Shown: piece after piece, positions 12,024 to 60,212 of the stretch
Position numbering within the stretch: the stretch's first letter is position 1
How the letters are laid out: each line of letters opens with the position of its first letter
Source: Undibacterium sp. 5I1
GTDB taxonomy: Bacteria; Pseudomonadota; Gammaproteobacteria; Burkholderiales; Burkholderiaceae_D
Length of the DNA: 64,000 nt
Direction: 5' to 3'
Assembly (NCBI RefSeq): GCF_034314085.1
Contig: NZ_JAVIWI010000002.1
Span: 62,001-126,000, forward strand
Notes under the pieces: generated by a model
Told to the model about the DNA's origin: nothing
What the model saw: only the letters and a program-made list of their open reading frames with translations
Database searches by the model: none
Made by a program: the position numbers and the translations under genes

Positions 12024-12464
12024 ATGGCAAATATCAGCTTTCTTGGGACAGGATTGCTCGGCGGTGCATTCGCTGAAGCTGCGGCAAAACGTGGTGACTC
12101 AGTCACCGCATGGAATCGTTCTGCGGACAAAGTTAACGCTTTGATGCAATTTGGTGTCAAAGCCGCCGCAACTCCTGCTGACGCAGTCCGAGGTGCATCG
12201 CGAGTGCATCTAGTGCTAAAAGATGACGCAGTTGTCGAAGAAGTTATTGCCATGGCACGTACTGCACTCGAGCCTGGTACGATCATCATTGATCATACTA
12301 CGACCTTGCCGGTACTCACCGCAAAGCGCGCTGAACAACTTCATACCGCAGGATTGAAGTATTTGCACTGCCCTGTCTTTATCCGATTTGCGCGTAAAAC
12401 CCCGTCGTTCAGGGCGGGGATGTAAGCGCGGAAGGCGAAGCCTTCCTTGTCTTGGACTTTCGGT

Positions 12465-12884
12465 TTAATGCGGCGTTTGCTGTTGCTCGATGTACTTGCG
12501 AATCACAGCAATAGGCGCACCTCCGCAGCTTCCAGCGAAGTAGCTAGGCGACCACAGCGCACCGCCCCAGAGTTTCTTGCGGATGTTCGGATAGTTCTTC
12601 TTCCGAATCATCAAGCTTGATATTCCCTTGAGGCTGTTCACAAGCTTTGACACTGCCACTTTAGGCGGATAGTTCACCAGTAGGTGAACGTGGTCGTCCT
12701 CGCCGTCGAACTCAACAAGCTCCGATTCAAAGTCCTTGCAGACACTAGCAAATATTGGGCGCAGATCATCAAGAATCTCTTTGGTGAATACCCCGCGCCG
12801 GTATTTTGTCACAAAGACCAAATGCACATGCATCATAAATACACAGTGTCTTCCAGTCCTAATATCGTTGTTGTCTTCGCTCAT
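12465..12884 (-). CDS. tnpA: IS200/IS605 transposase TnpA (Y1 HUH enzyme)
   Basis: 139-residue single-strand DNA transposase. The metal-binding HUH motif is H65-V-H67 in EDDHVHLLVNYPP, and the catalytic tyrosine is Y131 in IRKYIEQQQ. The start MSEDNNDIRTGRHCVF at 12884 fits the family length; an open extension to 12920 would overlap tnpB. It cuts and joins the hairpin ends as a dimer. All key residues are present, so it is probably active. Confidence 0.93.
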   Translation of the reverse strand: MSEDNNDIRTGRHCVFMMHVHLVFVTKYRRGVFTKEILDDLRPIFASVCKDFESELVEFDGEDDHVHLLVNYPPKVAVSKLVNSLKGISSLMIRKKNYPNIRKKLWGGALWSPSYFAGSCGGAPIAVIRKYIEQQQTPH

Positions 12885-12905
12885 AGACCAGAGTATGATC
12901 GAACC

Positions 12906-14147
12906 ATGCAAAGACTTCAAGCCTTTAAATACGAACTGATGCCAGACGGCGAACAGCAGCGCGATATGCGCCGCTTTGCTGGGTCGTGCAGGTTCGTCTA
13001 TAACAAGGCTTTAGCATTGCAAAAAGAAAATCACGAAGCAGGAAACAAGTTCATCGGCTACGTGCCAATGGCGGCGAATCTGCCGATCTGGAAGCGTGAA
13101 TCTGGTACGGAATGGCTCAAAGAAACGCCATCCCAGGCGCTGCAACATGCCCTGAAGGACTTGGACAAAGCCTACAGCAACTTCTTTGCCAAACGTGCCG
13201 ACTTCCCGCGCTTTAAAAAGAAAGGCAGTGGCGACAGCTTCCGCTATCCCGACCCGAAACAGATCAAGCTCGATCAGGCCAACGACCGCATCCTCGTGCC
13301 GAAACTTGGCTGGATACGCTACCGCAACAGTCGTGATGTATTGGGCGAAGTGCGTAACGTCACGATAAGCCAATCAGGTGGCAAATGGTTCGCCTCGATC
13401 CAGACGCAGCGCGAAGTCGAACAGCCATTGCCCACGGCAACAAGCGCTATCGGCATCGATGTCGGCATTGCGCGGTTCGCCACCATGAGCGATGAGAGCT
13501 ATATCGCGCCACTCAACAGCTTTAAGAAGCACCAGCAACGCCTTGCACGTTACCAACGGCGCATGAGCCATAAGGTGAAGTTCAGCAGTAACTGGAAAAA
13601 GGCAAAAGCCAAAGTCCAGAAGATTCACACCGGCATCGCTAACGCCAGAAAAGATTTCCTGCACAATACCACAACGACGATCAGCCAAAACCACGCGCTC
13701 GTATGCATTGAGGATTTGCAGGTACGGAATATGTCCAAGTCTTCCAAAGGCAATAGTGAACAGCACGGCAAGATGGTCAAGCAGAAGTCTGGCCTAAACC
13801 GTTCCATCCTCGATCAGGGCTGGGGCGAATTCAGGCGACAACTGGCGTATAAGGTGCAGTGGCACGGCGGCATGTTGCTTGCCGTTCCGCCGCACCACAC
13901 CAGCCAGACGTGTCCATGCTGCGGCCATGTGTCGAAAGACAATCGGCAAACACAAGCAAAATTCTTGTGTGTCGATTGTGGCTACGAAAATCACGCCGAT
14001 GTCGTTGGCGCGATCAATATTTTAGAGCGGGGATACCGCTTGTTAGCCTGTGGAGAGTCGGTGCAGTCAGACCGCTCAGTGAAGCAGGAACCCGCCGAAG
14101 CGACTCGCAAATCATCGCGCAGCGCCGTAGGAATCCCCGTCCTTTAG
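12906..14147 (+). CDS. tnpB: RNA-guided nuclease TnpB of IS605 type
   Basis: 413 residues starting MQRLQAFKYELM; the longer open frame from 12684 runs antisense to tnpA and is rejected. RuvC catalytic residues are D185 (AIGIDVGIARF), E269 (LVCIEDLQVRN) and D365 (NHADVVGAIN). A zinc ribbon has C336, C339, C355 and C358. TnpB proteins use a right-end RNA to cut DNA next to a target-adjacent motif and help retain the element. The stop codon TAG lies in the loop of the right-end hairpin, so coding and RNA functions overlap. Confidence 0.95.
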   Translation: MQRLQAFKYELMPDGEQQRDMRRFAGSCRFVYNKALALQKENHEAGNKFIGYVPMAANLPIWKRESGTEWLKETPSQALQHALKDLDKAYSNFFAKRADFPRFKKKGSGDSFRYPDPKQIKLDQANDRILVPKLGWIRYRNSRDVLGEVRNVTISQSGGKWFASIQTQREVEQPLPTATSAIGIDVGIARFATMSDESYIAPLNSFKKHQQRLARYQRRMSHKVKFSSNWKKAKAKVQKIHTGIANARKDFLHNTTTTISQNHALVCIEDLQVRNMSKSSKGNSEQHGKMVKQKSGLNRSILDQGWGEFRRQLAYKVQWHGGMLLAVPPHHTSQTCPCCGHVSKDNRQTQAKFLCVDCGYENHADVVGAINILERGYRLLACGESVQSDRSVKQEPAEATRKSSRSAVGIPVL

Positions 14148-14164
14148 GGCGGGGAGGATGTCAA
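14040..14164 (+). ncRNA. predicted right-end guide RNA (reRNA/omegaRNA) scaffold for TnpB copy 1
   Basis: In characterised IS605 elements the 3' end of tnpB plus the element right end makes the guide RNA scaffold, and the guide is the flanking DNA. Here the right end has the hairpin 14135-14154 and ends at 14164. The 5' limit is a guess. The guide would begin at 14165 (GGGACCACCGGC), inside the dehydrogenase gene. Confidence 0.45.
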
Positions 14165-14660
14165 GGGACCACCGGCTGCTAGAAACGCTCAAGGTTCAAT
14201 GATGGTTGCTGGCCCAAGTGCTCTATTCGAATCGGTCAAGGCAGATCTCGCCAAGATGACCGGGCGTCTGGTTTATATAGGAGAACGATCCGACCTTGCC
14301 GCCGCGAACAAATTACTAGGTAATGCAATGATCATTGGCCTCTCTGCAGTAATGGCAGATGTGCTGACTCTGGCGCAGGCAAGCGATATACATGGTGAAG
14401 ATGCGATCAAGTTGCTTGGTATGCTGGACTTAAATGCGACGGTCGGCGGTCGCGGGCTCAACATGGCAAAAGGCAACTTCGCTCCGAGTTTTGAGCTAGT
14501 GATGGCACGCAAGGATGTGCGTCTGATGTTGGAAACATCTGGCAGTCGCTCGATGGCAACACTGCCAGCAATTGCGGCCAGAATGGATCAGCTCATCGCC
14601 GCTGGACATGGTGCTGAAGATGCCAGCGTGCTTGGAATCGATGCAGTGGTGCGGCCTTGA

Positions 14661-14955: not shown

Positions 14956-16045
14956 GGCGTTGGTGCACTTAAAAGTTGAAGTAAAAAGTACCCCAACTCC
15001 GATCATTTATGCAGGAACTTTCTGACTACGGACGGAGTTTGGGCGTCCAGCAGCGAGCATGCGATTTAACACAGCAACACCGACGGCGGCCTCGGTTTTT
15101 TGCGCTTCGAATCTGCGCGCACGCAGTCGAGGACCGATGATCGATTTATAGCGTCCCATGGTCGTTTCGACCAAAGCACGCTGTCCATAACCAGTGGCTT
15201 CTTGCCAAGCCAACCGACCCTCTGTATTGATCATGTCAAGATGGCGATTACGCTGACTTGGCGAACGCGATTGAGTACCAGGAACGGCGGTTTTACGGGG
15301 TGGGATAACCACCGCAATATCGTCACCATATTGCGCGATCGTTTGATAAGTGGGCGCGCCATCATAGGCACCATCGGCAGTGACTTTGTCGATTTGTTCG
15401 TCGACCTGATCCAGTAGTGGCCCCACTTGAGATGGGTCATCCGTATGCTGATCGGTGAGGATCTGCGCGACAATCATGCCTGCATCGACATCGACGGCCA
15501 GATGTAGTTTGCGCCAGCTACGGCGCGACTTCGCGCCATGTTTTTCTTCCAGCCATTGTCCTGCCCCAAAGACCTGCAAACCTGTGCTGTCGATGAGCAC
15601 ATGGAGTGGCCCCTTTGGTGCGGATGGTGACTTCGTTACCGTCAGTCCGACCGCCCGTCTGCTGACCGTGGTGTGATCCGGTGCCGTGATTGTCAGGTTC
15701 ATCAGTGTCAGCACGGAAGCCATTAACCCTTCGGTTTGTCGCAGGGCCATTTTGAAGGCGGAGCGCAGCATCAGACTCGTCTCAATGGCGCTATCCCGAT
15801 AGCGAGCCTGACCATTTGGCCCTACGCTTTGCCACTGATCTAATGCTGCGTCTTCAATCCACAACGTCAGGCTACCGCGCCGCCGTAATCCTGCTTCATA
15901 TTCCGGCCAATTCTGAACCTTGAACGACATCTTAGGTATATGATGACGCCGATCGTCGTTGTGTTTGTTGGGCATCGGGGCGATCAGTAAAATTGAGGCC
16001 GCATCGTAACATCACCGCTTTTCGAGTTTGAAGTGCACCAACGCC
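14956..16045 (-). mobile_element. IS5-family element, complete (copy A)
   Basis: 1090 bp bounded by GGCGTTGGTGCACTT and its inverse. It is identical to copies B, C and D apart from scattered single-base changes (one silent change near 15951). The flanks are AACT on the left and GATC on the right; no target duplication. The right flank continues directly into a fragment of another IS5 copy in opposite orientation. Confidence 0.95.
15007..15975 (-). CDS. IS5-family transposase (copy A)
   Basis: 322-residue DDE transposase. The catalytic residues sit in HVLIDSTGLQVFG (D), VTADGAYDGAPT (D) and ALVETTMGRYKSIIGPRLRA (E with the downstream R/K). The N-terminus (MPNKHNDDRRHHIPKMSFKV) precedes an RRRGSLTLWI motif common in IS5 transposases. 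It is intact, and so near-identical to the other three that the expansion must be recent. Confidence 0.95.
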   Translation of the reverse strand: MPNKHNDDRRHHIPKMSFKVQNWPEYEAGLRRRGSLTLWIEDAALDQWQSVGPNGQARYRDSAIETSLMLRSAFKMALRQTEGLMASVLTLMNLTITAPDHTTVSRRAVGLTVTKSPSAPKGPLHVLIDSTGLQVFGAGQWLEEKHGAKSRRSWRKLHLAVDVDAGMIVAQILTDQHTDDPSQVGPLLDQVDEQIDKVTADGAYDGAPTYQTIAQYGDDIAVVIPPRKTAVPGTQSRSPSQRNRHLDMINTEGRLAWQEATGYGQRALVETTMGRYKSIIGPRLRARRFEAQKTEAAVGVAVLNRMLAAGRPNSVRSQKVPA

Positions 16046-16232
16046 GATCATCGGTCCTCGACTGCGTGCGCGCAGATTCGAAGCGCAAAAAACCGAGGCC
16101 GCCGTCGGTGTTGCTGTGTTAAATCGCATGCTCGCTGCTGGACGCCCAAACTCCGTCCGTAGTCAGAAAGTTCCTGCATAAATGATCGGGGTTGGGGTAC
16201 TTTTTACTTCAACTTTTAAGTGCACCAACGCC
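16046..16232 (+). pseudogene. 187-bp 3' end fragment of an IS5 copy
   Basis: It matches the last 187 bp of the complete copies exactly in length, beginning GATCATCGGTCC (transposase codons for SIIGPRL) and ending at the terminal repeat at 16232. It lies head-on against copy A, so copy A seems to have entered, or recombined into, an older copy whose 5' part is gone. The base string GATC follows both IS ends (16046 and 16233). Confidence 0.92.
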
Positions 16233-16298: not shown

Positions 16299-17515
16299 TT
16301 AATTCAGCTGCATAACTAGTGTTTTCCTGGAGACAAACAGATAGCCCATCAGAGACAGTGTGATAAAGCCGACCGTACTGATCGTGAAATTTGCGCTGGG
16401 TTGGAACGACAGATCTGATACCACCATAGTACCTATTCCGGCGAAGCAATATTGGATGCATGTGAGCAGTCCCAACGCATGGGCCCCTTTGTCCCGGAAG
16501 TAGTTCGTCACGATCACCTGCACGGGCGGGTTGATGAGGGCCGTGGCCAGCCGCAGTAAGCAAGTACCTAGCGTGATCAGGCCGACGGTAAGCATAGTGT
16601 CGTGGGTAAACATTTGGGCAAGGATGACGGAGGTGCCCAGCATAGAAGTATAAATGCCGATTCCGACGATCTTCTGCGGTGTCACGTTGCTCGCGTTGAG
16701 CTTGCTCATCATACGATTTCCTAACAGATAAGCCAGAGCGATACCGATGAACAGATAGGCATAGTTGGTTTCACTCATCCCATACTGGTTGATGTACATG
16801 AAGCTGGAAATGCTGATAAATGCATAGAAAGCGGCAAACGCGGCGCCGACAATCAACGCGAGACCCAAAAAGTAGTTGTTCTCGAGAACACTGTAGTAAC
16901 TCAGGAGATGCGTCTTCATGCTGAAGTTGGCGCGAAACTCTTTTTGCCGATGGTTACTCTCGCATATCACCACCCACGCCCATGCGAATAAGGGAATTTC
17001 GAACAGTGCGATGGCCCAGAAGCAATTGCGCCAGTTGGAGACTTTCACGATCCATGCGCCCAATACCGGTGCGAGGATCGGCGAAAGAACCAGTCCGACT
17101 ACCAACAAGCCGGTAGCGTGAATCTGCGCCTTCTTGTCCATAGTATCCTTGATGATCAGCCTTAAGACGATATAGACCGCCGCACTACCCAGTGCCTGCG
17201 CGGCTCGTAACGCGATCATGGCAGGCATGGCAGTACACAGCGCGATCCAGACCGAGGCGGCGATATGTATGAGCAGACAGGAAAGAACCACAGAACGGCG
17301 TCCCCACAACTCGCTGACAACGCCGATAAACAGCACGAAGAACGCTTGGCTGTAGTTGTAGACTGAGATAGTTAGATTGCTCACGTCCATTGATACGCCG
17401 AATTCGCGGGCAATCAGGGGCAAGCCGGACAGGAAAATATCCGTGCATGCCTGGGTGGAGAAAAGAAGTAATACCATAAGGATGACAGGGGGGGGCGAAT
17501 GCCATTTGAGTTCAT
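16299..17515 (-). CDS. MFS drug/metabolite exporter (Bcr/CflA-like), start out of frame at a G8 tract
   Basis: Twelve-helix exporter; the frame from 17477 gives 392 residues with GVVSELWGRRSVVLSCLLIH (the MFS loop 2-3 signature) and SPILAPVLGAWIVKV (motif C of drug:H+ antiporters). The best ribosome-binding site (AGGA) lies seven bases before ATG 17515 (MNSNGIRPP), but a run of eight Gs at 17488-17495 puts this start one base out of register with the body. Nine would join them, giving PPPVILMVLLLFSTQACTD and a full first helix. It is last in the five-gene operon and is the likely product exporter. Confidence 0.85.
17488..17495. repeat. homopolymeric G8 (C8 in the coding sense) tract
   Basis: Eight consecutive G on the plus strand inside the 5' coding part of the exporter. 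Such tracts slip during replication and can switch translation on and off; they are also common sequencing errors. Confidence 0.85.
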
Positions 17516-17539
17516 AGAATAATCCTGCAAATAATGTGT

Positions 17540-18085
17540 TCAGTGACAGTCCAGCGCTAAGAGTTGCTGGGCCAAAGGCGGGCGGACGTCTGGACTGGTA
17601 AGGCCGTCCTCCCAGGCGCGGCGGAGCGCGACTTGCAAGTCTGCATACTCGGAATCAGACACGTTCGCCGGCCTGTTTTCGCGCATCGCGGTGGCGATGT
17701 GGCGTAGCTGTTCCAGTTGGTCGCCGATATAAAACGGTAGCCGCACGTCGCTGAGGTCGACTCGGTGGCCGTCCGGCAAAATGCGCGTGTCACGCTCGAA
17801 ATCGATGCTGAAGCGGCCTATCTGGATTAGGATGTAGCGCGAGTGGCTGCTGTTCTCGGAGCAGTGCGAAACCCGGTGAATGGTATTGGCGGGCACCTGC
17901 ACGACCTGACCCGGATGAAAAAGACAGGACTGGCCGCTCTCCGGTAGTTCTAGCAACAGACGCCCAGAGGCGCAATAAGTAATATCGGAAATATACGTAT
18001 GGCGGTGAAAGGCTAGGTTCTCGCTACCTACGTTATAGATGCATACACGGATATCGCCAGCGAAGGAAAATTCTTTGAAGTCCAT
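17540..18085 (-). CDS. cupin-domain protein (AraC N-terminal-like, no DNA-binding domain)
   Basis: 181 residues with a single small beta-barrel. AFHRHTYISDITYCASG and FHPGQVVQVPANTIHRV match cupin motifs 1 and 2, with His27, His29 and His69-type ligands, though the usual motif 1 glutamate is not obvious. Its C-terminus is helical and has no helix-turn-helix, so it is more likely an enzyme or ligand-binding protein than a regulator. It has a strong ribosome-binding site (AAGGGAGGTG) before ATG 18085, only three bases after the FAD gene stop, so it belongs to the operon. The function is unknown; cupins in such clusters include dioxygenases and decarboxylases. Confidence 0.75.
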   Translation of the reverse strand: MDFKEFSFAGDIRVCIYNVGSENLAFHRHTYISDITYCASGRLLLELPESGQSCLFHPGQVVQVPANTIHRVSHCSENSSHSRYILIQIGRFSIDFERDTRILPDGHRVDLSDVRLPFYIGDQLEQLRHIATAMRENRPANVSDSEYADLQVALRRAWEDGLTSPDVRPPLAQQLLALDCH

Positions 18086-18088
18086 TGC

Positions 18089-19777
18089 TCACCTCCCTTG
18101 ATGAATTAGACTTGAATCGGCCGCCGCGAAAATCGCCCAGTCCTGCGCGACCACCTTAGCGGCATTCACGAACGCTGCCGCGTAGTTGTTCTGATTTTGC
18201 CAGTACTGCGTGACCGGTCCGAAGGAATACAGATGGTCCGAATGGCGCGTGCCAGCTATCGTTGCGTGCGCCACCCGAAAGCTGCTCGACTCCGCAGCAG
18301 CAACGCCGCCCGTCCGATAGCCGTCCTCGCTGTATTCCAGCAGCTCACCACTTTCCAGCAAATGACGGATGAGTTGGGATGGATGGCGGCGCATGTCGTA
18401 ATTGTGGCCATGGGATCGGATCACGATATCGGGCAGAACCGCTCTTTCGTCACCACCGATCGTGAACGCAGCACTGAATTGCTCCTGATAGCCAAGGCGT
18501 ACCGTCGACAGTACTCCGGCCTCGACTAGCGCGACGAGTTTCTTCGCGTTCTGTAGGGGAATCGGCACGGCGGTGCGGATGAAATGAGTATCGAACTGGC
18601 TGTCGTAACGGAGCTTGTCCGCAGCCCTCAAGTGCTCATAGAAGCGCAAGCGGCGCGCACGCAGCACGATGGCGTGGACTATGCGTTCGCTGCGTTCGCC
18701 GCGGATTTCGGTCAAGAGCTTGTCGTAAGCGCTGGCAAACGGTGGAGCGGCGACATCGTTGAAACTAAGCCGCCCGTCGCTCGCAGCGGCTAATTCGGCG
18801 TCAATCAGCGCGATCACGTCGTCGAGCAGGACTGTCCCGTGGTTGCTTTGCCTTAGCTCGTTGATGGCGTTGTCTTTCAGATAGCGGAACTCGTCATTCA
18901 AAAGAGGCCAACGCACGCCGGGGAAGAATCCCGAGCGCGAGCCAGCGATAATCTTGACGTCCTCCACCCCGAAGTAGTGCCAGTCCGGCTCGAAGCTCCG
19001 CGCTAAACCGTCCGCACCGTATACAAACCTGCCATGTTCACACGCGCTCAAGATGGCATCGACCGCGCTCGGCCCCATGCCTTGGACATACACCGTGAGT
19101 TGCCGTTGTCGGTGTGCCTGCTGATAAGCCAACATACTGACATGAATGTTTTCCGGGGGGTAAGGCGAAGCCAGCACGGCGGTGCTGGACTGTTCGCTGG
19201 GCCAATGGCCAGAGGCCAACAACACTTTGTCCAGGTGCTCGAGGCGGGTAACCGCGCCACTGGTTCGACATTGGATCGTCAACGCGAAGTGGCCGTCGCG
19301 GGTCGCGCCGTTGATCGCTTCGTGACCGTTGAAAGTGCATACCGATATTCCGTGGCCAGCTGCGCGCTCGCTCGCCTGCTTGAAGCGGCTCGACAGGTAC
19401 ATGCCGAACAGGGCACGCGGATAAAACGCCGTTGCGACTGGTTCCCACTGTTCAAGCTGGGTGCTTGGATCAGAAGCCAGTATCAGTTCAGGGTGGTCAG
19501 CGATGATCTGCTCGCGGCGTTCCCGCATCCAATCGAGGAAATCATTGTCGAACAAGGACATTTTTTCTGCCGGGTTATTGCACAGGTGGTATGGTGCGCT
19601 GCAGTCGCTGCCATATGGAAATCCGGGCCCGTTCGTCGGCTGGCGTTCGACGGTGGTGATGACAATGTCACCTCGCAGGACGGTGTCACTGTCGATGCTC
19701 CGGCATAAGGTGTCGACCAGGTGCCAGAGCATGCAGGTGCCGGAGAATCCGGTGCCAATGATGCAGTAGCGCGTCAT
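18089..19777 (-). CDS. FAD/NAD(P)-binding oxidoreductase (NAD_binding_9 type)
   Basis: 562 residues from MTRYCIIGTGFSGT (dinucleotide-binding G-x-G-x-x-G at residues 8-13). PGFPYGSDCSAPYHLCNNPA, then EKMSLFDNDFLDWM, is characteristic of the FAD-NAD(P)-binding family (PF13454). A second nucleotide-binding region is suggested by VYVQGMGPSAVDAILSACEH. The start at 19777 overlaps the aminotransferase stop (ATGA), giving tight coupling. Family members are poorly characterised flavoproteins that may oxygenate or oxidise amino-acid-like substrates; no substrate is assigned here. Confidence 0.88.
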   Translation of the reverse strand: MTRYCIIGTGFSGTCMLWHLVDTLCRSIDSDTVLRGDIVITTVERQPTNGPGFPYGSDCSAPYHLCNNPAEKMSLFDNDFLDWMRERREQIIADHPELILASDPSTQLEQWEPVATAFYPRALFGMYLSSRFKQASERAAGHGISVCTFNGHEAINGATRDGHFALTIQCRTSGAVTRLEHLDKVLLASGHWPSEQSSTAVLASPYPPENIHVSMLAYQQAHRQRQLTVYVQGMGPSAVDAILSACEHGRFVYGADGLARSFEPDWHYFGVEDVKIIAGSRSGFFPGVRWPLLNDEFRYLKDNAINELRQSNHGTVLLDDVIALIDAELAAASDGRLSFNDVAAPPFASAYDKLLTEIRGERSERIVHAIVLRARRLRFYEHLRAADKLRYDSQFDTHFIRTAVPIPLQNAKKLVALVEAGVLSTVRLGYQEQFSAAFTIGGDERAVLPDIVIRSHGHNYDMRRHPSQLIRHLLESGELLEYSEDGYRTGGVAAAESSSFRVAHATIAGTRHSDHLYSFGPVTQYWQNQNNYAAAFVNAAKVVAQDWAIFAAADSSLIHQGR

Positions 19778-21060
19778 CAACGCAGGCCGTCCAGCGCGAT
19801 TTTGATGCGCTGTGCCGCGCGGGTCAGCACCGCGCTGTCCCTTCCGCAATTGATCCTAACGAAATGCCGATAATGATCTTTCCCGGCATAGCCTTCCGCA
19901 AAATGCTCTCCCGAAATGGTCGCCACACGTGCTTCTTGCAACAGGAACTGTTCTGCATGGGTATATCCCAGCTGCTGGTATCGCTTCGCATAGGTTGACA
20001 GGTCAGCGAAGATGAAATAACCGCCTTGGGGTGTATGTACTGATAACTGACAGGCCCGCAGCAGTGCGATCATCTCTAGCGCACAGTTGCGCGCCTGGGT
20101 CGCTCGGCGATGTGCCACCTCGTCCATGGCCTCTTCCATTGCGTGGAAGCAGGCCACCTGGCCGTAGGTGCCGGCGAACGAATTGAGGTTGACTTGGACG
20201 TTGGCGGCGACCGCGATGAACCAGTCCGGCGCGTACATATAGCCGATCCGGTCGCCGTGCATGCCGTACGTCTTGCCCGGGCCCGTCACGTTGACTACAC
20301 AATCTCTCATGCGGTAGGCGCCGACCGTGAGCGCGGCGAATGCCTTGGCTCTTTCGTTGAGGATATGGGCTTCGTACGGGCAGTCGTAGATAACTATCAT
20401 GGGCGCCAAGCCATCCTCTGCTCTATCGATGTTGTGTTTGGCGACGACGGCGCCCAACGCCTGCAATTCCGACGTCGTGTATACCTTTCCGGTCGGGTTG
20501 ATGCAATCGCCCAGAATGATTAGCTTGGTGTTGGGGGTGATGGCGTCACTCAAGGCGTTAGCCGACACGCCTTTTTCGATGAGCGCGTCGGACTGGACAA
20601 ACACGGGGGTGCCCCCATGCAGACGGATCATGTCGGCGTAGTGTGGCCAGTTGGGCAGCGGCACGATGACTTCGTCGCCTGAGTTCAGCAGACTATGCAG
20701 TACGACCGCGATGGCGCCCTTGATGCCCCCCGGCGTGACCATGATCTCGGTCGCTGGATCATACGTAACGTCGTGCACGCGTGCAACGCGCTGCGCAATA
20801 GCCTTGAGTAAAAAATCGAATCCCTTGACGGGAGCGAACTGGTGGATAAGGTGCGGGGTATTCTTGATGAAGTCGATTACGCCTTGGTCGATACGCAGAT
20901 CGGTGGGCGTGTCGAGAGTACCGATGCTCAGGTCGATGATCTTGTCGGGTTCTGCATAGCCCTCGTTTAACTGAGCGATGCGCATACGCATACCGTGAGT
21001 AATCGACTCGCCGATGCTGAGTGCGGCGTGGGAAAAGACGTTATTTAATGGCTTAGTCAT
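19777..21060 (-). CDS. class I/II PLP-dependent aminotransferase
   Basis: 427 residues of fold-type I. The PLP lysine is K263 in VTGPGKTYGMHGDRIGY, with the phosphate-binding R271. N188 (INPTGK), D226 and Y229 (YDCPYEAH) are the other cofactor contacts. The unusual GPGKTYG in place of the common S-x-S-K sequence may reflect a special substrate. A ribosome-binding AGGAT lies eight bases before ATG 21060. It sits second in the operon, after the diiron enzyme. It could supply or consume a 2-oxo acid, or act as a PLP enzyme on an oxidised amino acid; both are inferences. Confidence 0.92.
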   Translation of the reverse strand: MTKPLNNVFSHAALSIGESITHGMRMRIAQLNEGYAEPDKIIDLSIGTLDTPTDLRIDQGVIDFIKNTPHLIHQFAPVKGFDFLLKAIAQRVARVHDVTYDPATEIMVTPGGIKGAIAVVLHSLLNSGDEVIVPLPNWPHYADMIRLHGGTPVFVQSDALIEKGVSANALSDAITPNTKLIILGDCINPTGKVYTTSELQALGAVVAKHNIDRAEDGLAPMIVIYDCPYEAHILNERAKAFAALTVGAYRMRDCVVNVTGPGKTYGMHGDRIGYMYAPDWFIAVAANVQVNLNSFAGTYGQVACFHAMEEAMDEVAHRRATQARNCALEMIALLRACQLSVHTPQGGYFIFADLSTYAKRYQQLGYTHAEQFLLQEARVATISGEHFAEGYAGKDHYRHFVRINCGRDSAVLTRAAQRIKIALDGLR

Positions 21061-21139
21061 GTTGTCATCCTATTGGGAGAGGCCATTAGACATCCGCGGC
21101 GCAAGACAATTCGCCGCGCACGTGGCCATTCCATGGTGT

Positions 21140-21910
21140 TTAATTGGCAAGCTGCGCGGCGTGGCGATACATACCGTTCCACATGTGATGCTGGATCTTT
21201 AGCGTTTGGTCGATACCATAGATAATATCGGCTAGGTCGGCTTCCGACGAGCAGTTATTCAGAACACATTGCTGCGCATCTGCGGCGTGGCGATCCTCGA
21301 CACCGCTATCGAGATGGCAATTGAAATAAACCTCGACGTCATGGGTGTAGCGTTTTTGATCCAAATTGTGGCGGCTGGCACCGAACGCGTCACGGAAATG
21401 CGTAAGCATGATGCTCGCGTGAGTTTCAAGGGCGTACGCAACTCCCAACATTGTTCGATAATTCATTCCCAGCAATTGGTTTACTTTGGAGCGGTAATCC
21501 TTAGTTTCTTCTATCACCAGCGCGAATGCTTTATCGTTGCGCGTGCCATCGCGGCGACCTTCCAAGTCCCTGACTTTCAACGCAGGCAGGTCAAACTCGA
21601 ACTGACCATACAGATTATGCGAATTTTCCATAAGTAACTCGTGGCAATGCGATTTTTTACCATCACCGCATTCCTCGTTGAGAATATACGAAAACAAGAT
21701 TAGAGTGTCTTGGTCGTGTTCTTTCGCCGCGTGGCCGCAGATGTGGGCGATGCCGATTACAGTAGCCATCGTCCGATAGAAAAAATTCGCCCGATGAATC
21801 GCAAACAGTGTCGGCGTTAACTTGGTTTCTTTCAAAAGTTTGAAATAGTCGTTGGTGAAGACTGGATGGTCTGCCAGTTCGTTCATATAGCTCAATAACT
21901 GTTGCTGCAT
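21140..21910 (-). CDS. heme-oxygenase-like diiron oxidase/oxygenase (HDO family), first gene of operon
   Basis: 256 residues, all-helical. The ATG pair at 21913/21910 follows AAGGAG; 21910 has the better spacing, and the open extension to 21997 lacks a site. Candidate iron ligands typical of the HDO fold are Glu80 and His90 (LNEECGDGKKSHCHELL), Glu162 (ALETHASIML) and His199, Asp206 and His208 (CHLDSGVEDRHAAD). Haem oxygenases lack this carboxylate set. HDO enzymes perform N-oxygenation, desaturation, C-C cleavage or ring formation on amino-acid-derived substrates (UndA, SznF, BesC, PolF). Its leading place suggests it carries out the key oxidation. The exact reaction is unknown. Confidence 0.82.
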   Translation of the reverse strand: MQQQLLSYMNELADHPVFTNDYFKLLKETKLTPTLFAIHRANFFYRTMATVIGIAHICGHAAKEHDQDTLILFSYILNEECGDGKKSHCHELLMENSHNLYGQFEFDLPALKVRDLEGRRDGTRNDKAFALVIEETKDYRSKVNQLLGMNYRTMLGVAYALETHASIMLTHFRDAFGASRHNLDQKRYTHDVEVYFNCHLDSGVEDRHAADAQQCVLNNCSSEADLADIIYGIDQTLKIQHHMWNGMYRHAAQLAN

Positions 21911-22188: not shown

Positions 22189-22510
22189 GGTTCTGTCGCA
22201 ATAGCGAACCCAAGACGGAGTCTTGGCAGACGGATTCCGCCTATCATTAAACAGAGCGGATTTTTCCTGCCAAAGCATAAAATTGGTCGGCAAAAGACAG
22301 ATCATCTGCACCTTCCATCATGAGTTGACCCTTGCGAATCATGTGCATGAGTTCGATACCAACCAGGATGCTTTTGGCTGATCGGAACGATTTGAATCCG
22401 AGCATTGGTTTTGTTATCCGTTTCACTGCACGATGGTCTTGTTCCACGATATTATTGAGGTACTTGATCTGACATACCACCATAGGTATTTCCATGGAAG
22501 CGTTGATCTC
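22189..22510 (-). pseudogene. C-terminal fragment of an IS26-like IS6-family element
   Basis: The end repeat GGTTCTGTCGCA starts at 22189. The minus strand encodes QIKYLNNIVEQDHRAVKRIT, KPMLGFKSFRSAKSILVGIE and LMHMIRKGQL, the unmistakable IS6 C-terminus with the catalytic glutamate. It is cut by IS5 copy B at 22511, and the rest of the element is not found beyond copy B. Confidence 0.88.
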
Positions 22511-23600
22511 GGCGTTGGTGCACTTAAAAGTTGAAGTAAAAAGTACCCCAACTCCGATCATTTATGCAGGAACTTTCTGACTACGGACGGAGTTTGGGCG
22601 TCCAGCAGCGAGCATGCGATTTAACACAGCAACACCGACGGCGGCCTCGGTTTTTTGCGCTTCGAATCTGCGCGCACGCAGTCGAGGACCGATGATCGAT
22701 TTATAGCGTCCCATGGTCGTTTCGACCAAAGCACGCTGTCCATAACCAGTGGCTTCTTGCCAAGCCAACCGACCCTCTGTATTGATCATGTCAAGATGGC
22801 GATTACGCTGACTTGGCGAACGCGATTGAGTACCAGGAACGGCGGTTTTACGGGGTGGGATAACCACCGCAATATCGTCACCATATTGCGCGATCGTTTG
22901 ATAAGTGGGCGCGCCATCATAGGCACCATCGGCAGTGACTTTGTCGATTTGTTCGTCGACCTGATCCAGTAGTGGCCCCACTTGAGATGGGTCATCCGTA
23001 TGCTGATCGGTGAGGATCTGCGCGACAATCATGCCTGCATCGACATCGACGGCCAGATGTAGTTTGCGCCAGCTACGGCGCGACTTCGCGCCATGTTTTT
23101 CTTCCAGCCATTGTCCTGCCCCAAAGACCTGCAAACCTGTGCTGTCGATGAGCACATGGAGTGGCCCCTTTGGTGCGGATGGTGACTTCGTTACCGTCAG
23201 TCCGACCGCCCGTCTGCTGACCGTGGTGTGATCCGGTGCCGTGATTGTCAGGTTCATCAGTGTCAGCACGGAAGCCATTAACCCTTCGGTTTGTCGCAGG
23301 GCCATTTTGAAGGCGGAGCGCAGCATCAGACTCGTCTCAATGGCGCTATCCCGATAGCGAGCCTGACCATTTGGCCCTACGCTTTGCCACTGATCTAATG
23401 CTGCGTCTTCAATCCACAACGTCAGGCTACCGCGCCGCCGTAATCCTGCTTCATATTCCGGCCAATTCTGAACCTTGAACGACATCTTAGGTATATGATG
23501 ACGGCGATCGTCGTTGTGTTTGTTGGGCATCGGGGCGATCAGTAAAATTGAGGCCGCATCGTAACATCACCGCTTTTCGAGTTTGAAGTGCACCAACGCC
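22511..23600 (-). mobile_element. IS5-family element, complete (copy B)
   Basis: 1090 bp, same orientation as copy A. Left flank is a broken IS6 element (ATCTC) and right flank a broken istA (TATTC); the absence of a duplication and the two unrelated flanks point to a recombination junction. Confidence 0.95.
22562..23530 (-). CDS. IS5-family transposase (copy B)
   Basis: The 322-residue product is the same as in copies A, C and D, with the DDE residues intact. See copy A for motifs. Confidence 0.95.
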   Translation of the reverse strand: MPNKHNDDRRHHIPKMSFKVQNWPEYEAGLRRRGSLTLWIEDAALDQWQSVGPNGQARYRDSAIETSLMLRSAFKMALRQTEGLMASVLTLMNLTITAPDHTTVSRRAVGLTVTKSPSAPKGPLHVLIDSTGLQVFGAGQWLEEKHGAKSRRSWRKLHLAVDVDAGMIVAQILTDQHTDDPSQVGPLLDQVDEQIDKVTADGAYDGAPTYQTIAQYGDDIAVVIPPRKTAVPGTQSRSPSQRNRHLDMINTEGRLAWQEATGYGQRALVETTMGRYKSIIGPRLRARRFEAQKTEAAVGVAVLNRMLAAGRPNSVRSQKVPA

Positions 23601-32695: not shown

Positions 32696-33937
32696 CTAAA
32701 GGACGGGGATTCCTACGGCGCTGCGCGATGATTTGCGAGTCGCTTCGGCGGGTTCCTGCTTCACTGAGCGGTCTGACTGCACCGACTCTCCACAGGCTAA
32801 CAAGCGGTATCCCCGCTCTAAAATATTGATCGCGCCAACCACATCGGCGTGATTTTCATAGCCGCAATCGACACACAAGAATTTTGCTTGTGTGAGGCGA
32901 TTGTCTTTCGATATATGGCCGCAGGCTGGGCACGTCTGGCTTGTGTGGTGCGGCGGAACGGCAAGCAACATGCCGCCGTGCCACTGCACCTTATACGCTA
33001 ATTGTCGCCTGAATTCGCCCCATCCCTGATCGAGGATGGAACGGTTTAGGCCAGACTTCTGCTTGACCATCTTGCCGTGCTTTTCACTATTGCCTTTGGA
33101 AGACCTGGACATGTTCCGTACCTGCAAATCCTCAATGCATACGAGCGCGTGGTTTTGGCTGATCGTCGTTGTGGTATTGTGCAGGAAGTCTTTTCGGGCA
33201 TTGGCGATGCCGGTATGAATCTTCTGGACTTTGGCTTTCGCCTTTTTCCAGTTGCTGCTGAACTTCACCTTGCGGCTCATGCGCCGCTGATAGCGAGCCA
33301 GGCGTTGCTGGTGTTTCTTGAAACTGTTGATCGGTGCGACGAAGCTGCCATCGCTCATGGTGGCGAACCGGGCAATGCCGACATCGATGCCAATGGCGGT
33401 GGTGGCCGTGGGTAATGGCTGTTCAACTTCACGCTGCGTCTGAATCGACGCGAACCACTTTCCGCTCGACTGACTCACGGTGACATTGCGGACCTCACCA
33501 AGAACATCGCGGCTGTTGCGGTAGCGAATCCAGCCCAGCTTTGGTAAAAACAGGCGATCGTTATCTTGGTCGAGTTTGATTTGTTTCGGGTCTGGGTAGC
33601 GGAATGCATCGCCGCTGCCCTTGCGCTTAAAGCGCGGGAAATCGGCGCGTTTAGCAAAGAAGTTTGTGTAGGCTTTGTCCAAGTCCTTTAAAGCATGTTG
33701 CAGTGCTTGGGATGGCGTTTCTTTGAGCCATGCCGTATCAGGTCCACGCTTCCAGATTGGTAGATTTGCTGCCATCGGCACGTAGCCGATGTACTTGATT
33801 CCGGCTTCGTGGTTCTGCTTTTGCAGTGCTAAAGCCTTGTTATAGACGAACCGACACGAACCAGCGAATCGGCGCATATCGCGCTGCTGTTCGCCGTTTG
33901 GCATCAGTTCGTATTTAAAGGCTTGAAGTCGTTGCAT
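32696..33937 (-). CDS. tnpB: RNA-guided nuclease TnpB (copy 2)
   Basis: 413 residues, nearly identical to copy 1, with RuvC residues in AIGIDVGIARF, LVCIEDLQVRN and NHADVVGAIN and the zinc ribbon CPACGH...CVDCGY intact. Small differences (for example SRSSKGNSEKHG) show separate histories. Its guide RNA would read into 32678 and below (AGCTAAACGATT). Confidence 0.95.
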   Translation of the reverse strand: MQRLQAFKYELMPNGEQQRDMRRFAGSCRFVYNKALALQKQNHEAGIKYIGYVPMAANLPIWKRGPDTAWLKETPSQALQHALKDLDKAYTNFFAKRADFPRFKRKGSGDAFRYPDPKQIKLDQDNDRLFLPKLGWIRYRNSRDVLGEVRNVTVSQSSGKWFASIQTQREVEQPLPTATTAIGIDVGIARFATMSDGSFVAPINSFKKHQQRLARYQRRMSRKVKFSSNWKKAKAKVQKIHTGIANARKDFLHNTTTTISQNHALVCIEDLQVRNMSRSSKGNSEKHGKMVKQKSGLNRSILDQGWGEFRRQLAYKVQWHGGMLLAVPPHHTSQTCPACGHISKDNRLTQAKFLCVDCGYENHADVVGAINILERGYRLLACGESVQSDRSVKQEPAEATRKSSRSAVGIPVL

Positions 33938-33958
33938 GATTCGATCATACTCTGGTCT

Positions 33959-34378
33959 ATGAGCGAAGACAACAACGATATTAGGACTGGAAGACACTGC
34001 GTATTTAATATGCATGTGCATCTGGTCTTTGTAACAAAATACCGACGCGGCGTATTCACAAAAGAGATTCTTGACGACTTGCGACCAATATTCTCCAGTG
34101 TCTGCAATGACTTTGAATCGGAGCTTGTTGAGTTCGACGGCGAGGACGACCACGTTCACCTACTGGTGAACTATCCGCCTAAAGTGGCAGTGTCAAAGCT
34201 TGTGAACAGTCTCAAGGGAATATCAAGCTTGATGATTCGGAAGAAAAACTATCCGAACATCCGCAAGAAACTCTGGGGCGGTGCGCTGTGGTCGCCCAGC
34301 TACTTTGCCGGAAGTTGTGGGGGTGCGCCGATTGCAGTTATTCGCAAGTACATTGAGCAGCAGCAAACGCCGCATTAA
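33959..34378 (+). CDS. tnpA: IS200/IS605 transposase TnpA (copy 2)
   Basis: 139 residues from MSEDNNDIRTGRHCVFNMHV, with the HUH motif in EDDHVHLLVNYPP and the tyrosine in IRKYIEQQQ. Divergent from tnpB by 21 bp. Confidence 0.93.
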   Translation: MSEDNNDIRTGRHCVFNMHVHLVFVTKYRRGVFTKEILDDLRPIFSSVCNDFESELVEFDGEDDHVHLLVNYPPKVAVSKLVNSLKGISSLMIRKKNYPNIRKKLWGGALWSPSYFAGSCGGAPIAVIRKYIEQQQTPH

Positions 34379-38774: not shown

Positions 38775-40547
38775 ATGCCAAGTAGCCAATCAGAGCTCTT
38801 TCCATTAGCTGGACTTCCGGAATGGCTTCCAAACGAACTTCTATTTAGTTTAGGAAGTCGATACCACCTATATTCTGCTAACTCCAAATCGTCAGCAACG
38901 TGCAATCAACTTTTTGGTGCTCCTAGAGCAGGTTATCAGCATGATTTTCCGTGCCGCATTGAAGAGTTTGCTCGTAGGTCTGGATATTCAATTGGAAGTG
39001 CCATTGAGATCATTCGTGAGCACACCATCCTGCCTTTTTACCTTCCATTTCGACCGGTATCTGATCAGGAATTAGCGATCTCTACAATGCAGGGCAACAC
39101 GGTTCAATCTCTGAAATACCGTCTTGGAATTTTGACTAGCCGTTTTCGAGCCAATCATCCATTAAAAGCTTGCACTGAATGTATCGAGGCTGACAAAAAG
39201 GAACATCATATTGCCTATTGGCATTTAGACCATCAATATCCAGGAGTTTGGACTTGCCCCACTCATCGAATACCTCTTCTAGAATCTTTGGTCAAATCTA
39301 ACGGCGTTGGGCGATTTCTTTGGTATCTTCCCAGCGAAGATATATTGACATCAGCACTTACTTTTCACACTCATGATTTGGTATCTCAATCACTAATCGA
39401 AATGGGAGCACTTTCGGAAATCGTCCTTGCATATAGTTGTTTACCTGCGGGATTTAATTTTGATGCTCAACGATTGCTTGAGACTTACCACGAGGGATTA
39501 GAGAATCATGATCTAAAGAAAAATAATGGCCAACTAAATTTAACAAAAATAGGACATTCGTACTTTCAAGCGATGTCATTTTTACGTGCCACTAATTTGG
39601 TAATTGGATTTCCAGAAAATGTACACCTAGCGGAAGTACAAATGAACCGTCTGTTGCGGTCGCCACGGTCTGGAACACATCCGTTAAGACATCTTCTAAT
39701 AGTTAAATGGCTATTTCAAGATTGGTCTGACTTCATGAGTACCTACTCTAAAAGTAAAGGACAAATGAAAGAGGTGAAATTCGAATTTCCTGCGACTGTA
39801 TCAGCGGAAACGCTGCCGCTAATCGATATTAGGCATGACCAATTTCTATCGCTATTAAAGACTGAAAAACTTTCCATTACTAAGGCTGCAGCACGGGTAG
39901 AAATTGATACGACCACCGGCATGGTATGGGCCACAAAGGCAGGATTTGCAATTTCGCGACGCCCGAAAGTATTAAAAGAAGAAATTCGAAAAAACCTAAT
40001 CGCAGATTTACGTATTGGCTTAGATAAACAAACTGCATCGAAAAAATATTCTATTTCAATACAAACGATAACAACGACTTTACGCACCGAAGTGGGACTG
40101 CATCATTTCTGGCAGCTGGCTCAACACACAAATCGGTTAATTAAAAATCGCGCCGAGTGGGGCGCCTTACTTAATGGAAATCCAAATAACGGTGTGAAAA
40201 CCATCCGTGCATTGGCACCAGCTATCTATGCATGGCTGTATCGAAATGATAGAGATTGGCTTAGAGAGAGAACTTCAAATCAAGTCTCTGCAATATGTGG
40301 AAATAATTCGTCAGTCGACTGGGACAAACGTGATCAGTTTCTGGCTAACGAAGTACAACGCATTGCATTAGCTATTTATGGTCTAAATGGATCTCGTAAA
40401 TTAAATTTGTGGGAGATTTACCAGAAATTACCTGAGCTGAAGGCAAAATTGCAGTCACTTAATAGATTGCCTCTAACAAGAAGATCAATAGAATTTGTCA
40501 CTTTAGGAGTATCCAAGAAAGCTAATTTCGATGACGGTCTATTCTAA
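38775..40547 (+). CDS. tnsD: TnsD/TniQ-family Tn7-like target-site selection protein, orphan
   Basis: 590 residues. The TniQ domain starts SELFPLAGLPEWLPNELLFS and LGSRYHLYSA, and the zinc finger C133-x2-C136 ... C161-x2-H164 (CTECIEADKK ... WTCPTH) with YWHLDHQYPGVW is the hallmark. The C-terminal region (TKAAARVEIDTTTGMVWATK) has helix-turn-helix repeats that in TnsD bind the attachment site. TnsA, TnsB and TnsC are absent from the window. The protein may be left from a Tn7-like element or borrowed by another system. Confidence 0.85.
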   Translation: MPSSQSELFPLAGLPEWLPNELLFSLGSRYHLYSANSKSSATCNQLFGAPRAGYQHDFPCRIEEFARRSGYSIGSAIEIIREHTILPFYLPFRPVSDQELAISTMQGNTVQSLKYRLGILTSRFRANHPLKACTECIEADKKEHHIAYWHLDHQYPGVWTCPTHRIPLLESLVKSNGVGRFLWYLPSEDILTSALTFHTHDLVSQSLIEMGALSEIVLAYSCLPAGFNFDAQRLLETYHEGLENHDLKKNNGQLNLTKIGHSYFQAMSFLRATNLVIGFPENVHLAEVQMNRLLRSPRSGTHPLRHLLIVKWLFQDWSDFMSTYSKSKGQMKEVKFEFPATVSAETLPLIDIRHDQFLSLLKTEKLSITKAAARVEIDTTTGMVWATKAGFAISRRPKVLKEEIRKNLIADLRIGLDKQTASKKYSISIQTITTTLRTEVGLHHFWQLAQHTNRLIKNRAEWGALLNGNPNNGVKTIRALAPAIYAWLYRNDRDWLRERTSNQVSAICGNNSSVDWDKRDQFLANEVQRIALAIYGLNGSRKLNLWEIYQKLPELKAKLQSLNRLPLTRRSIEFVTLGVSKKANFDDGLF

Positions 40548-59120: not shown

Positions 59121-60210
59121 GGCGTTGGTGCACTTCAAACTCGAAAAGCGGTGATGTTACGATGCGGCCTCAATTTTACTGATCGCCCCGATGCCCAACA
59201 AACACAACGACGATCGCCGTCATCATATACCTAAGATGTCGTTCAAGGTTCAGAATTGGCCGGAATATGAAGCAGGATTACGGCGGCGCGGTAGCCTGAC
59301 GTTGTGGATTGAAGACGCAGCATTAGATCAGTGGCAAAGCGTAGGGCCAAATGGTCAGGCTCGCTATCGGGATAGCGCCATTGAGACGAGTCTGATGCTG
59401 CGCTCCGCCTTCAAAATGGCCCTGCGACAAACCGAAGGGTTAATGGCTTCCGTGCTGACACTGATGAACCTGACAATCACGGCACCGGATCACACCACGG
59501 TCAGCAGACGGGCGGTCGGACTGACGGTAACGAAGTCACCATCCGCACCAAAGGGGCCACTCCATGTGCTCATCGACAGCACAGGTTTGCAGGTCTTTGG
59601 GGCAGGACAATGGCTGGAAGAAAAACATGGCGCGAAGTCGCGCCGTAGCTGGCGCAAACTACATCTGGCCGTCGATGTCGATGCAGGCATGATTGTCGCG
59701 CAGATCCTCACCGATCAGCATACGGATGACCCATCTCAAGTGGGGCCACTACTGGATCAGGTCGACGAACAAATCGACAAAGTCACTGCCGATGGTGCCT
59801 ATGATGGCGCGCCCACTTATCAAACGATCGCGCAATATGGTGACGATATTGCGGTGGTTATCCCACCCCGTAAAACCGCCGTTCCTGGTACTCAATCGCG
59901 TTCGCCAAGTCAGCGTAATCGCCATCTTGACATGATCAATACAGAGGGTCGGTTGGCTTGGCAAGAAGCCACTGGTTATGGACAGCGTGCTTTGGTCGAA
60001 ACGACCATGGGACGCTATAAATCGATCATCGGTCCTCGACTGCGTGCGCGCAGATTCGAAGCGCAAAAAACCGAGGCCGCCGTCGGTGTTGCTGTGTTAA
60101 ATCGCATGCTCGCTGCTGGACGCCCAAACTCCGTCCGTAGTCAGAAAGTTCCTGCATAAATGATCGGGGTTGGGGTACTTTTTACTTCAACTTTTAAGTG
60201 CACCAACGCC
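59121..60210 (+). mobile_element. IS5-family element, complete (copy D)
   Basis: 1090 bp. The left flank is intergenic sequence (ATATAAA), the right flank the middle of an NRPS condensation domain (CACTGG). No duplication. Confidence 0.95.
59191..60159 (+). CDS. IS5-family transposase (copy D)
   Basis: 322 residues, same as copy A; DDE residues intact. Confidence 0.95.
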   Translation: MPNKHNDDRRHHIPKMSFKVQNWPEYEAGLRRRGSLTLWIEDAALDQWQSVGPNGQARYRDSAIETSLMLRSAFKMALRQTEGLMASVLTLMNLTITAPDHTTVSRRAVGLTVTKSPSAPKGPLHVLIDSTGLQVFGAGQWLEEKHGAKSRRSWRKLHLAVDVDAGMIVAQILTDQHTDDPSQVGPLLDQVDEQIDKVTADGAYDGAPTYQTIAQYGDDIAVVIPPRKTAVPGTQSRSPSQRNRHLDMINTEGRLAWQEATGYGQRALVETTMGRYKSIIGPRLRARRFEAQKTEAAVGVAVLNRMLAAGRPNSVRSQKVPA

Positions 60211-60212
60211 CA

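What the first reader, a model, noticed from the sequence alone, without database searches (positions are those of the whole stretch)
16299..21910. Five-gene operon: heme-oxygenase-like diiron enzyme, aminotransferase, flavoprotein, cupin, exporter
Seen: five minus-strand genes, with ATGA overlap (aminotransferase/FAD), a 3-bp gap (FAD/cupin) and a 24-bp gap (cupin/MFS), all in one block of higher GC than its surroundings. Known: HDO-fold enzymes perform N-oxygenation, desaturation and cyclisation of amino-acid-derived substrates. Inference: a small-molecule pathway without NRPS or PKS assembly, making an oxidised amino-acid derivative and exporting it. I know of no characterised cluster with exactly this set (the mgo and ham diazeniumdiolate clusters share only the HDO and, in part, cupin or aminotransferase).
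Basis: partly seen in the sequence, partly recalled or inferred. Interest (0 to 1): 0.85.

Follow-up and report, generated by a model that had tools for sequence, protein, structure and literature searches.

The report
Orphan amino-acid N-oxidation gene cluster
A small set of genes, probably for building and exporting an oxidised amino-acid-like compound, sits on a plasmid-like replicon of this bacterium and recurs as a rare cluster in very different bacteria; no product for it was found in the literature searched.

Summary
The five genes are real and form one minus-strand, higher-GC block on a 171-kb second replicon. Two junction details are wrong: aminotransferase/FAD is TGATG, not ATGA, and the exporter start behind the "24-bp gap" is out of frame in this sequence.

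The cluster is conserved. In 14 of 14 other loci with a full-length HDO the same PLP enzyme lies beside it. In 9 of 14 the flavoprotein and cupin follow, with a TauE-type transporter and an O-methyltransferase instead of the MFS; in 5 of 14, one nested clade, HDO+PLP stand with an unnamed conserved protein. Among 392 Streptomyces genomes the flavoprotein was found in 6, all with the HDO.

Best reading: an orphan pathway that N-oxidises an amino acid without NRPS/PKS; substrate and product unknown. New variant of a known kind, moderate interest.

The parts
21140..21910 (-). [quoted passage not shown] probable ligands E80, H90, E162, H199, E205, H208
   Evidence: PF14518; 54-sequence alignment; model pLDDT 96.1 and HDO fold
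19777..21060 (-). Aminotransferase-class-I-like PLP enzyme, 427 aa; K263 the PLP lysine by alignment
   Evidence: PF00155; invariant K263, D226, Y229, N188, R402, F75 in 12 members
18089..19777 (-). FzmM/CreE-class FAD and NAD(P)H dependent N-hydroxylase homologue, 562 aa from the ATG at 19777
17540..18085 (-). Small cupin, 181 aa, with HxH, Asp and His of a metal site (H27, H29, D34, H70)
   Evidence: PF07883; invariant in 10 of 10
16299..17477 (-). MFS exporter of the Bcr/CflA type, 392-aa open frame; 5' end uncertain
   Evidence: PF07690; relatives of 405-408 aa; upstream ATG out of frame
14956..16045 (-). Left flanking insertion sequence, 1,090 bp, DDE transposase at 15007-15975
   Evidence: one of seven full copies on the replicon
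22511..23600 (-). Right flanking copy of the same insertion sequence (one mismatch)
16045..16232 (+). 188-bp inverted fragment of the same insertion sequence beside the exporter
   Evidence: (C2:78045-78232)

Best explanation
The block is a horizontally dispersed biosynthetic operon that makes and exports a small N-oxidised amino-acid derivative without carrier proteins. Inferred order: the HDO (diiron, O2) and the PLP enzyme first act on a free amino acid and form a shared intermediate; the FzmM-like flavoprotein (NAD(P)H, FAD, O2) then hydroxylates an amine of it, once or repeatedly, towards hydroxylamine, oxime or nitro; the metal-site cupin completes or rearranges the N-oxidised intermediate; an exporter removes it (MFS here, TauE-type elsewhere, where an O-methyltransferase also caps the product). 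Shown: gene content, conservation, co-inheritance, conserved ligand and cofactor residues, predicted folds of HDO and flavoprotein. Inferred: every reaction, their order, and that substrate and product are amino-acid-like.
For: Conserved neighbourhood in 14 of 14 (HDO+PLP) and 9 of 14 (HDO, PLP, flavoprotein, cupin, TauE-type transporter, methyltransferase) loci. Flavoprotein found in 6 of 392 Streptomyces genomes, all among the 10 with the HDO. Tree distances correlate at 0.957 (HDO-AT), 0.991 (HDO-FAD), 0.952 (AT-FAD). Flavoprotein closest to FzmM by profile and fold, with FzmM active-site Arg266 aligned to invariant R290. HDO ligands conserved. One flavoprotein-cupin fusion, P0110. Seven shared contig lengths between flavoprotein and MFS homologue lists against 0.2 on average after shifting.
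Against: The fold list does not separate N-oxygenating HDOs from the rest: HrmI 23.8, CADD-like 23.4, BesC 21.9, PolF 21.2, and the metal-free PqqC still 20.3. FzmM similarity is 20% identity, and substrate residues other than one arginine could not be compared. Five of 14 loci lack flavoprotein and cupin, so N-oxidation by the flavoprotein is not needed in every version. The cupin co-varies least with the rest (0.75-0.84) and could be regulatory. No substrate evidence from the PLP enzyme. An NRPS gene lies 38 kb away in the window and one at the edge of the Nocardia locus, so a link to a larger assembly line in some strains is not excluded.
Confidence: 0.5

Rival explanations
1. The HDO carries out carbon chemistry (desaturation, C-C cleavage or cyclisation, as BesC, PolF or MboA do) on a free amino acid, and the PLP enzyme then eliminates or cyclises. 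HDO+PLP make the reactive group; flavoprotein, cupin and methyltransferase only decorate it.
For: HDO+PLP alone form a stable derived unit in 5 of 14 loci, and two of those genomes have no flavoprotein homologue at E<=0.001. BesC is the only HDO found by sequence, though weakly (E 0.41; NCBIfam 19.5 bits against a cut-off of 500). MboA shows alkyne formation by an HDO.
Against: HrmI, an N-oxygenase, is nominally first by fold, though tied. Every locus with the flavoprotein also has the HDO, so N-oxidation is at least part of the ancestral pathway.
Confidence: 0.3
2. The flavoprotein makes nitrosuccinate or another nitrite donor, as in the aspartate-nitrosuccinate route, and the released nitrogen oxide is joined by the cupin to an amine made by HDO and PLP enzyme.
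For: Closest solved relative is an aspartate N-hydroxylase. Cupins take part in N-N bond formation in several pathways (PMC11705231, passages).
Against: No lyase (CreD-like) gene is among the families conserved in 5 or more of the 14 loci, which are only HDO, PLP enzyme, flavoprotein, cupin, transporter, methyltransferase and the unnamed protein; I did not search for CreD itself. Only one FzmM active-site arginine could be compared.
Confidence: 0.1
3. In this strain the operon is a decaying plasmid passenger between insertion sequences, with a damaged exporter and no product, whatever it does elsewhere.
For: Seven full insertion-sequence copies on the 171-kb replicon and none on the other contig; IS copies and fragments on both sides; exporter start out of frame; no excess of promoter-like sites (3 found, 5.4 expected).
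Against: Five long open frames with conserved catalytic residues.
Confidence: 0.15

Closest known systems
FzmM / CreE / PcxL flavin N-hydroxylases (L-aspartate N-hydroxylase, PDB 8cp2, 8cp5)
   Same: Predicted fold over 490 residues, two dinucleotide-binding motifs, an active-site arginine.
   Different: 20% identity; substrate not known; no nitrosuccinate lyase among the conserved genes.
HDO N-oxygenases and other HDOs (HrmI, BesC, PolF, HamA, FlcD)
   Same: Heme-oxygenase-like fold and six-ligand set.
   Different: 8-19% identity in the structural alignments; extra conserved cysteines C58 and C215; different gene partners.
ham (fragin, valdiazen) and mgo (leudiazen) diazeniumdiolate clusters
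   Same: HDO and cupin; ham as described in PMC11705231 section 21.
   Different: These use NRPS genes (recalled); here a PLP enzyme and an FzmM-like flavoprotein and no NRPS gene in the operon. mgo was not looked up.
gvg (4-formylaminooxyvinylglycine) and mbo (mangotoxin) operons
   Same: NRPS-free amino-acid pathways with an HDO-fold protein; gvg also has an aminotransferase and exporters.
   Different: Class III aminotransferase, carbamoyl- and formyltransferase in gvg; ATP-grasp ligases in mbo; none of these in the five genes here.
SznF (streptozotocin)
   Same: Diiron HDO domain plus cupin chemistry.

Membership tests
HDO superfamily | Seven-helix heme-oxygenase-like fold | tested here: met
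HDO superfamily | Six metal-ligand residues | tested here: met
   E80, H90, E162, H199, H208 in 54 of 54 and E205 in 53 of 54; register of the last three from the BesC alignment and SznF ligand spacing.
HDO superfamily | Two bound metals and O2 activation | not testable with these tools
   Needs protein.
FzmM/CreE flavin N-hydroxylases | FAD and NAD(P)H domains with the helical substrate domain of FzmM | tested here: met
FzmM/CreE flavin N-hydroxylases | Active-site arginine cluster | tested here: inconclusive
   Arg266 aligns with invariant R290; Arg13, 409, 412, 416, 577 lie outside the printed alignment.
FzmM/CreE flavin N-hydroxylases | Aspartate N-hydroxylation | not testable with these tools
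   Needs protein.
Aspartate-nitrosuccinate (CreE plus CreD) pathway | Nitrosuccinate lyase partner in the cluster | not tested
   No search with a CreD sequence; only that no further family is conserved in 5 or more of the 14 loci.
GntC cyclodehydratase | NCBIfam NF041364 cut-off of 415 bits | tested here: not met
   158.7 bits.
ham/mgo diazeniumdiolate clusters | NRPS gene in the operon (feature recalled) | tested here: not met
   None of the five proteins has an NRPS domain; the NRPS gene at 60198 lies 38 kb away.
Metal cupins | HxH, acidic and His metal ligands (motif recalled) | tested here: met
   H27, H29, D34, H70 in 10 of 10.
Bcr/CflA efflux subfamily | TIGR00710 cut-off of 200.9 bits | tested here: not met
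   157.2 bits for the 392-aa ORF, which may be short at its start.

The most novel reading that the evidence does not exclude
A carrier-free pathway in which two unrelated O2-using N-oxygenases (a diiron HDO and an FzmM-type flavoprotein) act in turn on one free amino acid, and the stand-alone cupin joins or rearranges the oxidised nitrogens into an N-N bond or an O-methylated nitronate/oxime, in a module traded between Proteobacteria and Actinomycetota with swapped exporters.
Probability: 0.2. Interest if true: 0.75.

Novelty: new variant of a known kind. Interest (0 to 1): 0.5.

Why it matters
HDO pathways keep giving unexpected chemistry (nitro groups, alkynes, azetidines, nitriles). This one is short, has no NRPS/PKS gene, is present in Streptomyces, and comes in three natural versions: HDO+PLP only, six genes with methyltransferase, five genes with MFS. 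Comparing them would isolate what each enzyme adds. It also places an FzmM-type hydroxylase beside an HDO and a cupin.

Tried and rejected
Composite transposon: two copies of a 1,090-bp insertion sequence with one mismatch flank the block. But the element has seven full copies on this replicon, and the outer flanks show no matching target duplication. Transposition as a unit is possible, not shown.

Known clusters: mangotoxin, FVG, alanosine and ham and the dob diazo cluster were compared from papers, azomycin and fluopsin from recall; none has this gene set. Paper searches for the set or parts of it. They cover an open-access library only, so absence there is weak evidence. One search was a search for the PDB codes 8CP2 and 8CP5.

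Close relatives: no HDO match other than the window's own in 147 relatives, 349 genomes of the order and 369 of the class; these samples overlap. In the Sessilibacter family sample 2 of 100 matched: Sessilibacter itself and a weak 24% match (fetched as L033), whose stretch gave no match to the other cluster proteins.

Dropped rows: L028 (same 1,601,525-bp replicon as L004) and L018 (same place as L007) were not counted again; L034 holds only an HDO fragment without the other genes; L033 is the weak match. In one search only 3 candidates per listed genome were scored and the limit was 1e-60, so 6 of 392 is a lower bound for remoter flavoproteins. The HDO-MFS contig-length coincidence alone (3 seen; shifted mean 0.5, max 4) is not significant; FAD-MFS (7 seen; mean 0.2, max 2) and HDO-FAD (10 seen; mean 0.1, max 1) are. 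The position of the short clade among the six-gene Streptomyces loci differs between the HDO and AT trees, and I did not read support values.

Substrate prediction from the PLP enzyme failed: GntC and ordinary aminotransferase models are nearly tied. DNA search of the operon in plasmids: no match. Ligand geometry could not be measured because no coordinates are returned.
Full report
WHAT IS THERE. The window is bases 62001-126000 of contig C2 of a 4.88-Mb, two-contig genome. C2 is 171,029 bases long, so it is a second replicon, probably a plasmid (no replication genes were looked for). Close protein relatives named Undibacterium (89% for the exporter) and Janthinobacterium (71% for the HDO) suggest a member of that family; this is inference. 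The block has 55.1% GC against 47.1% for the rest. The AT/FAD junction is TGATG, FAD/cupin has a 3-bp gap and HDO/AT a 79-bp gap. The ATG that would leave 24 bp between cupin and exporter is out of frame with the exporter in this sequence; the open ORF begins at 17477, and the five relatives read have about 13 more residues there.

SURROUNDINGS. Two 1,090-bp insertion-sequence copies (14956-16045 and 22511-23600; one mismatch) and a 188-bp inverted fragment (16045-16232) flank the block, with a truncated IS240-type transposase at 22247-22561. The element has seven full and two partial copies in the genome, all on C2. The flanking is therefore suggestive of acquisition, with the raised GC, but not proof of a composite transposon; the outer flanks show no target duplication.

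CONSERVATION. HDO homologues number 76 at E<=0.001 among 5.8 billion sequences, the window's own included. Named ones include Vibrio, Photobacterium, Pseudoalteromonas, Streptomyces, Nocardia, Pseudonocardia and Janthinobacterium. In the plasmid records three carry the HDO, and the same three are the top rows for the PLP enzyme at 49.9-55.3% identity; the other five rows listed, of 914 records with a match, are at 31-32%. I counted 14 independent loci with a full-length HDO: L002-L008, L025-L027, L029-L032. The PLP enzyme adjoins in 14 of 14. In 9 of 14 it is followed by flavoprotein, cupin, TauE-type transporter and O-methyltransferase. In 5 of 14 it is followed by a conserved protein of about 250 residues, probably membrane-bound by its look, without a Pfam match in the two members scanned. 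The window's MFS matched nothing in these 14 stretches.

The MFS version is nevertheless not private. The flavoprotein and MFS homologue lists share 7 exact longest-contig lengths, and two of these (11,238 and 29,408) also occur in the HDO list. Shifting the lengths by 1-100 either way gives 0.2 on average, at most 2. This infers linkage from equal lengths; the contigs were not read.

In 392 Streptomyces genomes the HDO occurs in 10 (9 full length, 1 fragment), and the flavoprotein (E<=1e-60) in 6, all HDO-positive. The genomes are related, so the hypergeometric value of 4e-11 overstates the case. Two genomes with the short form, G429 and G430, have no flavoprotein match at E<=0.001 at all. 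Midpoint-rooted trees of HDO and AT both place the five short loci as one clade inside the actinobacterial group, though beside different six-gene loci. The short form is thus probably derived, and HDO+PLP is a separable unit. Distances correlate at 0.957 (HDO-AT), 0.991 (HDO-FAD), 0.952 (AT-FAD) and 0.75-0.84 with the cupin.

HDO. The model is confident (pLDDT 96.1). By Z the best are HrmI 23.8, CADD-like 3b5p 23.4, CADD 22.2, BesC 21.9, PolF 21.2, HamA 20.9 and FlcD 20.9, with PqqC, which uses no metal, at 20.3. The fold is that of HDOs, and the list does not fix the reaction. E80, H90, E162, H199 and H208 are invariant in 54 homologues, position 205 is E in 53 and Q in 1, and position 206 is E 29, D 19, Q 5, L 1. 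In the BesC alignment E205 faces the Glu three residues before the last histidine. SznF's ligands E215, H225, E281, H311, D315, H318 (PMC11705231, passage) have the same last spacing. Hence Glu205, not Asp206, is the likely ligand.

PLP ENZYME AND CUPIN. The PLP enzyme keeps K263, D226, Y229, N188 and R402 in all 12 members aligned. It has Phe75 in all 12, where aspartate aminotransferase 1j32 aligns Tyr, so it is probably not a housekeeping transaminase (inference). Its best NCBIfam model is GntC at 158.7 bits (cut-off 415), nearly tied with generic aminotransferases. The cupin keeps H27, H29, D34 and H70 in 10 of 10, the usual motif with Asp for Glu (motif recalled). One homologue, P0110, is a flavoprotein-cupin fusion, which hints that these two work together.

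MECHANISM. Shown: a co-inherited set with intact catalytic residues. Inferred: HDO+PLP build an intermediate, flavoprotein+cupin N-oxidise or rearrange it, and an exchangeable exporter removes it. Transporter families differ between lineages, as expected if the product is exported in each.

KNOWN OR NEW. No match was found in ten paper searches (only for PDB codes) of an open-access library. What I read: PMC13185094 parts 1-2 of 6; PMC13108848 outline and one passage; PMC13061610, PMC8067088 and PMC10404684 passages; PMC11705231 passages and section 21; all others as search listings. All enzyme classes are known; the combination and its distribution were not found described there. I rate it a new variant of a known kind, interest 0.5: a solid orphan cluster with unknown chemistry.

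Noticed in passing
window 12024-14660 (+): A 3-hydroxyisobutyrate-dehydrogenase-like gene seems split in two (12024-12425 and 14199-14660) by an IS200/IS605-type element with a TnpB gene (12684-14147).
   Followed up: no
window 32696-34159 (-): A second, similar TnpB-sized ORF of 487 aa.
   Followed up: no
window 44548-55422 (-): A 3,624-aa ORF with RTX calcium-binding repeats.
   Followed up: no
window 60198-64000 (+): An NRPS gene (AMP-binding, carrier and condensation domains) running off the window's end, beside another copy of the insertion sequence.
   Followed up: no
window 38775-40547 (+): A TnsD/TniQ gene of a Tn7-like element; its partners were not looked for.
   Followed up: no
P0110: A 749-aa fusion of the FzmM-like flavoprotein with the cupin.
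   Followed up: partly
P0143 (Francisella sp. W12-1067): A 35% identical homologue of the flavoprotein, named acyl-CoA dehydrogenase by its source; its neighbourhood was not seen.
   Followed up: no
L003 2998-11381: Upstream of the Nocardia HDO+PLP pair lie genes annotated as formyltransferase, NUDIX hydrolase, aldo/keto reductase and a second aminotransferase, which gave no match in the other loci tested.
   Followed up: partly
window 21140-21910 (-), residues 58, 89, 215, 220: The HDO has cysteines C58 and C215 invariant in 54 of 54, C89 in 53 and C220 in 49; their role is unknown.
   Followed up: no
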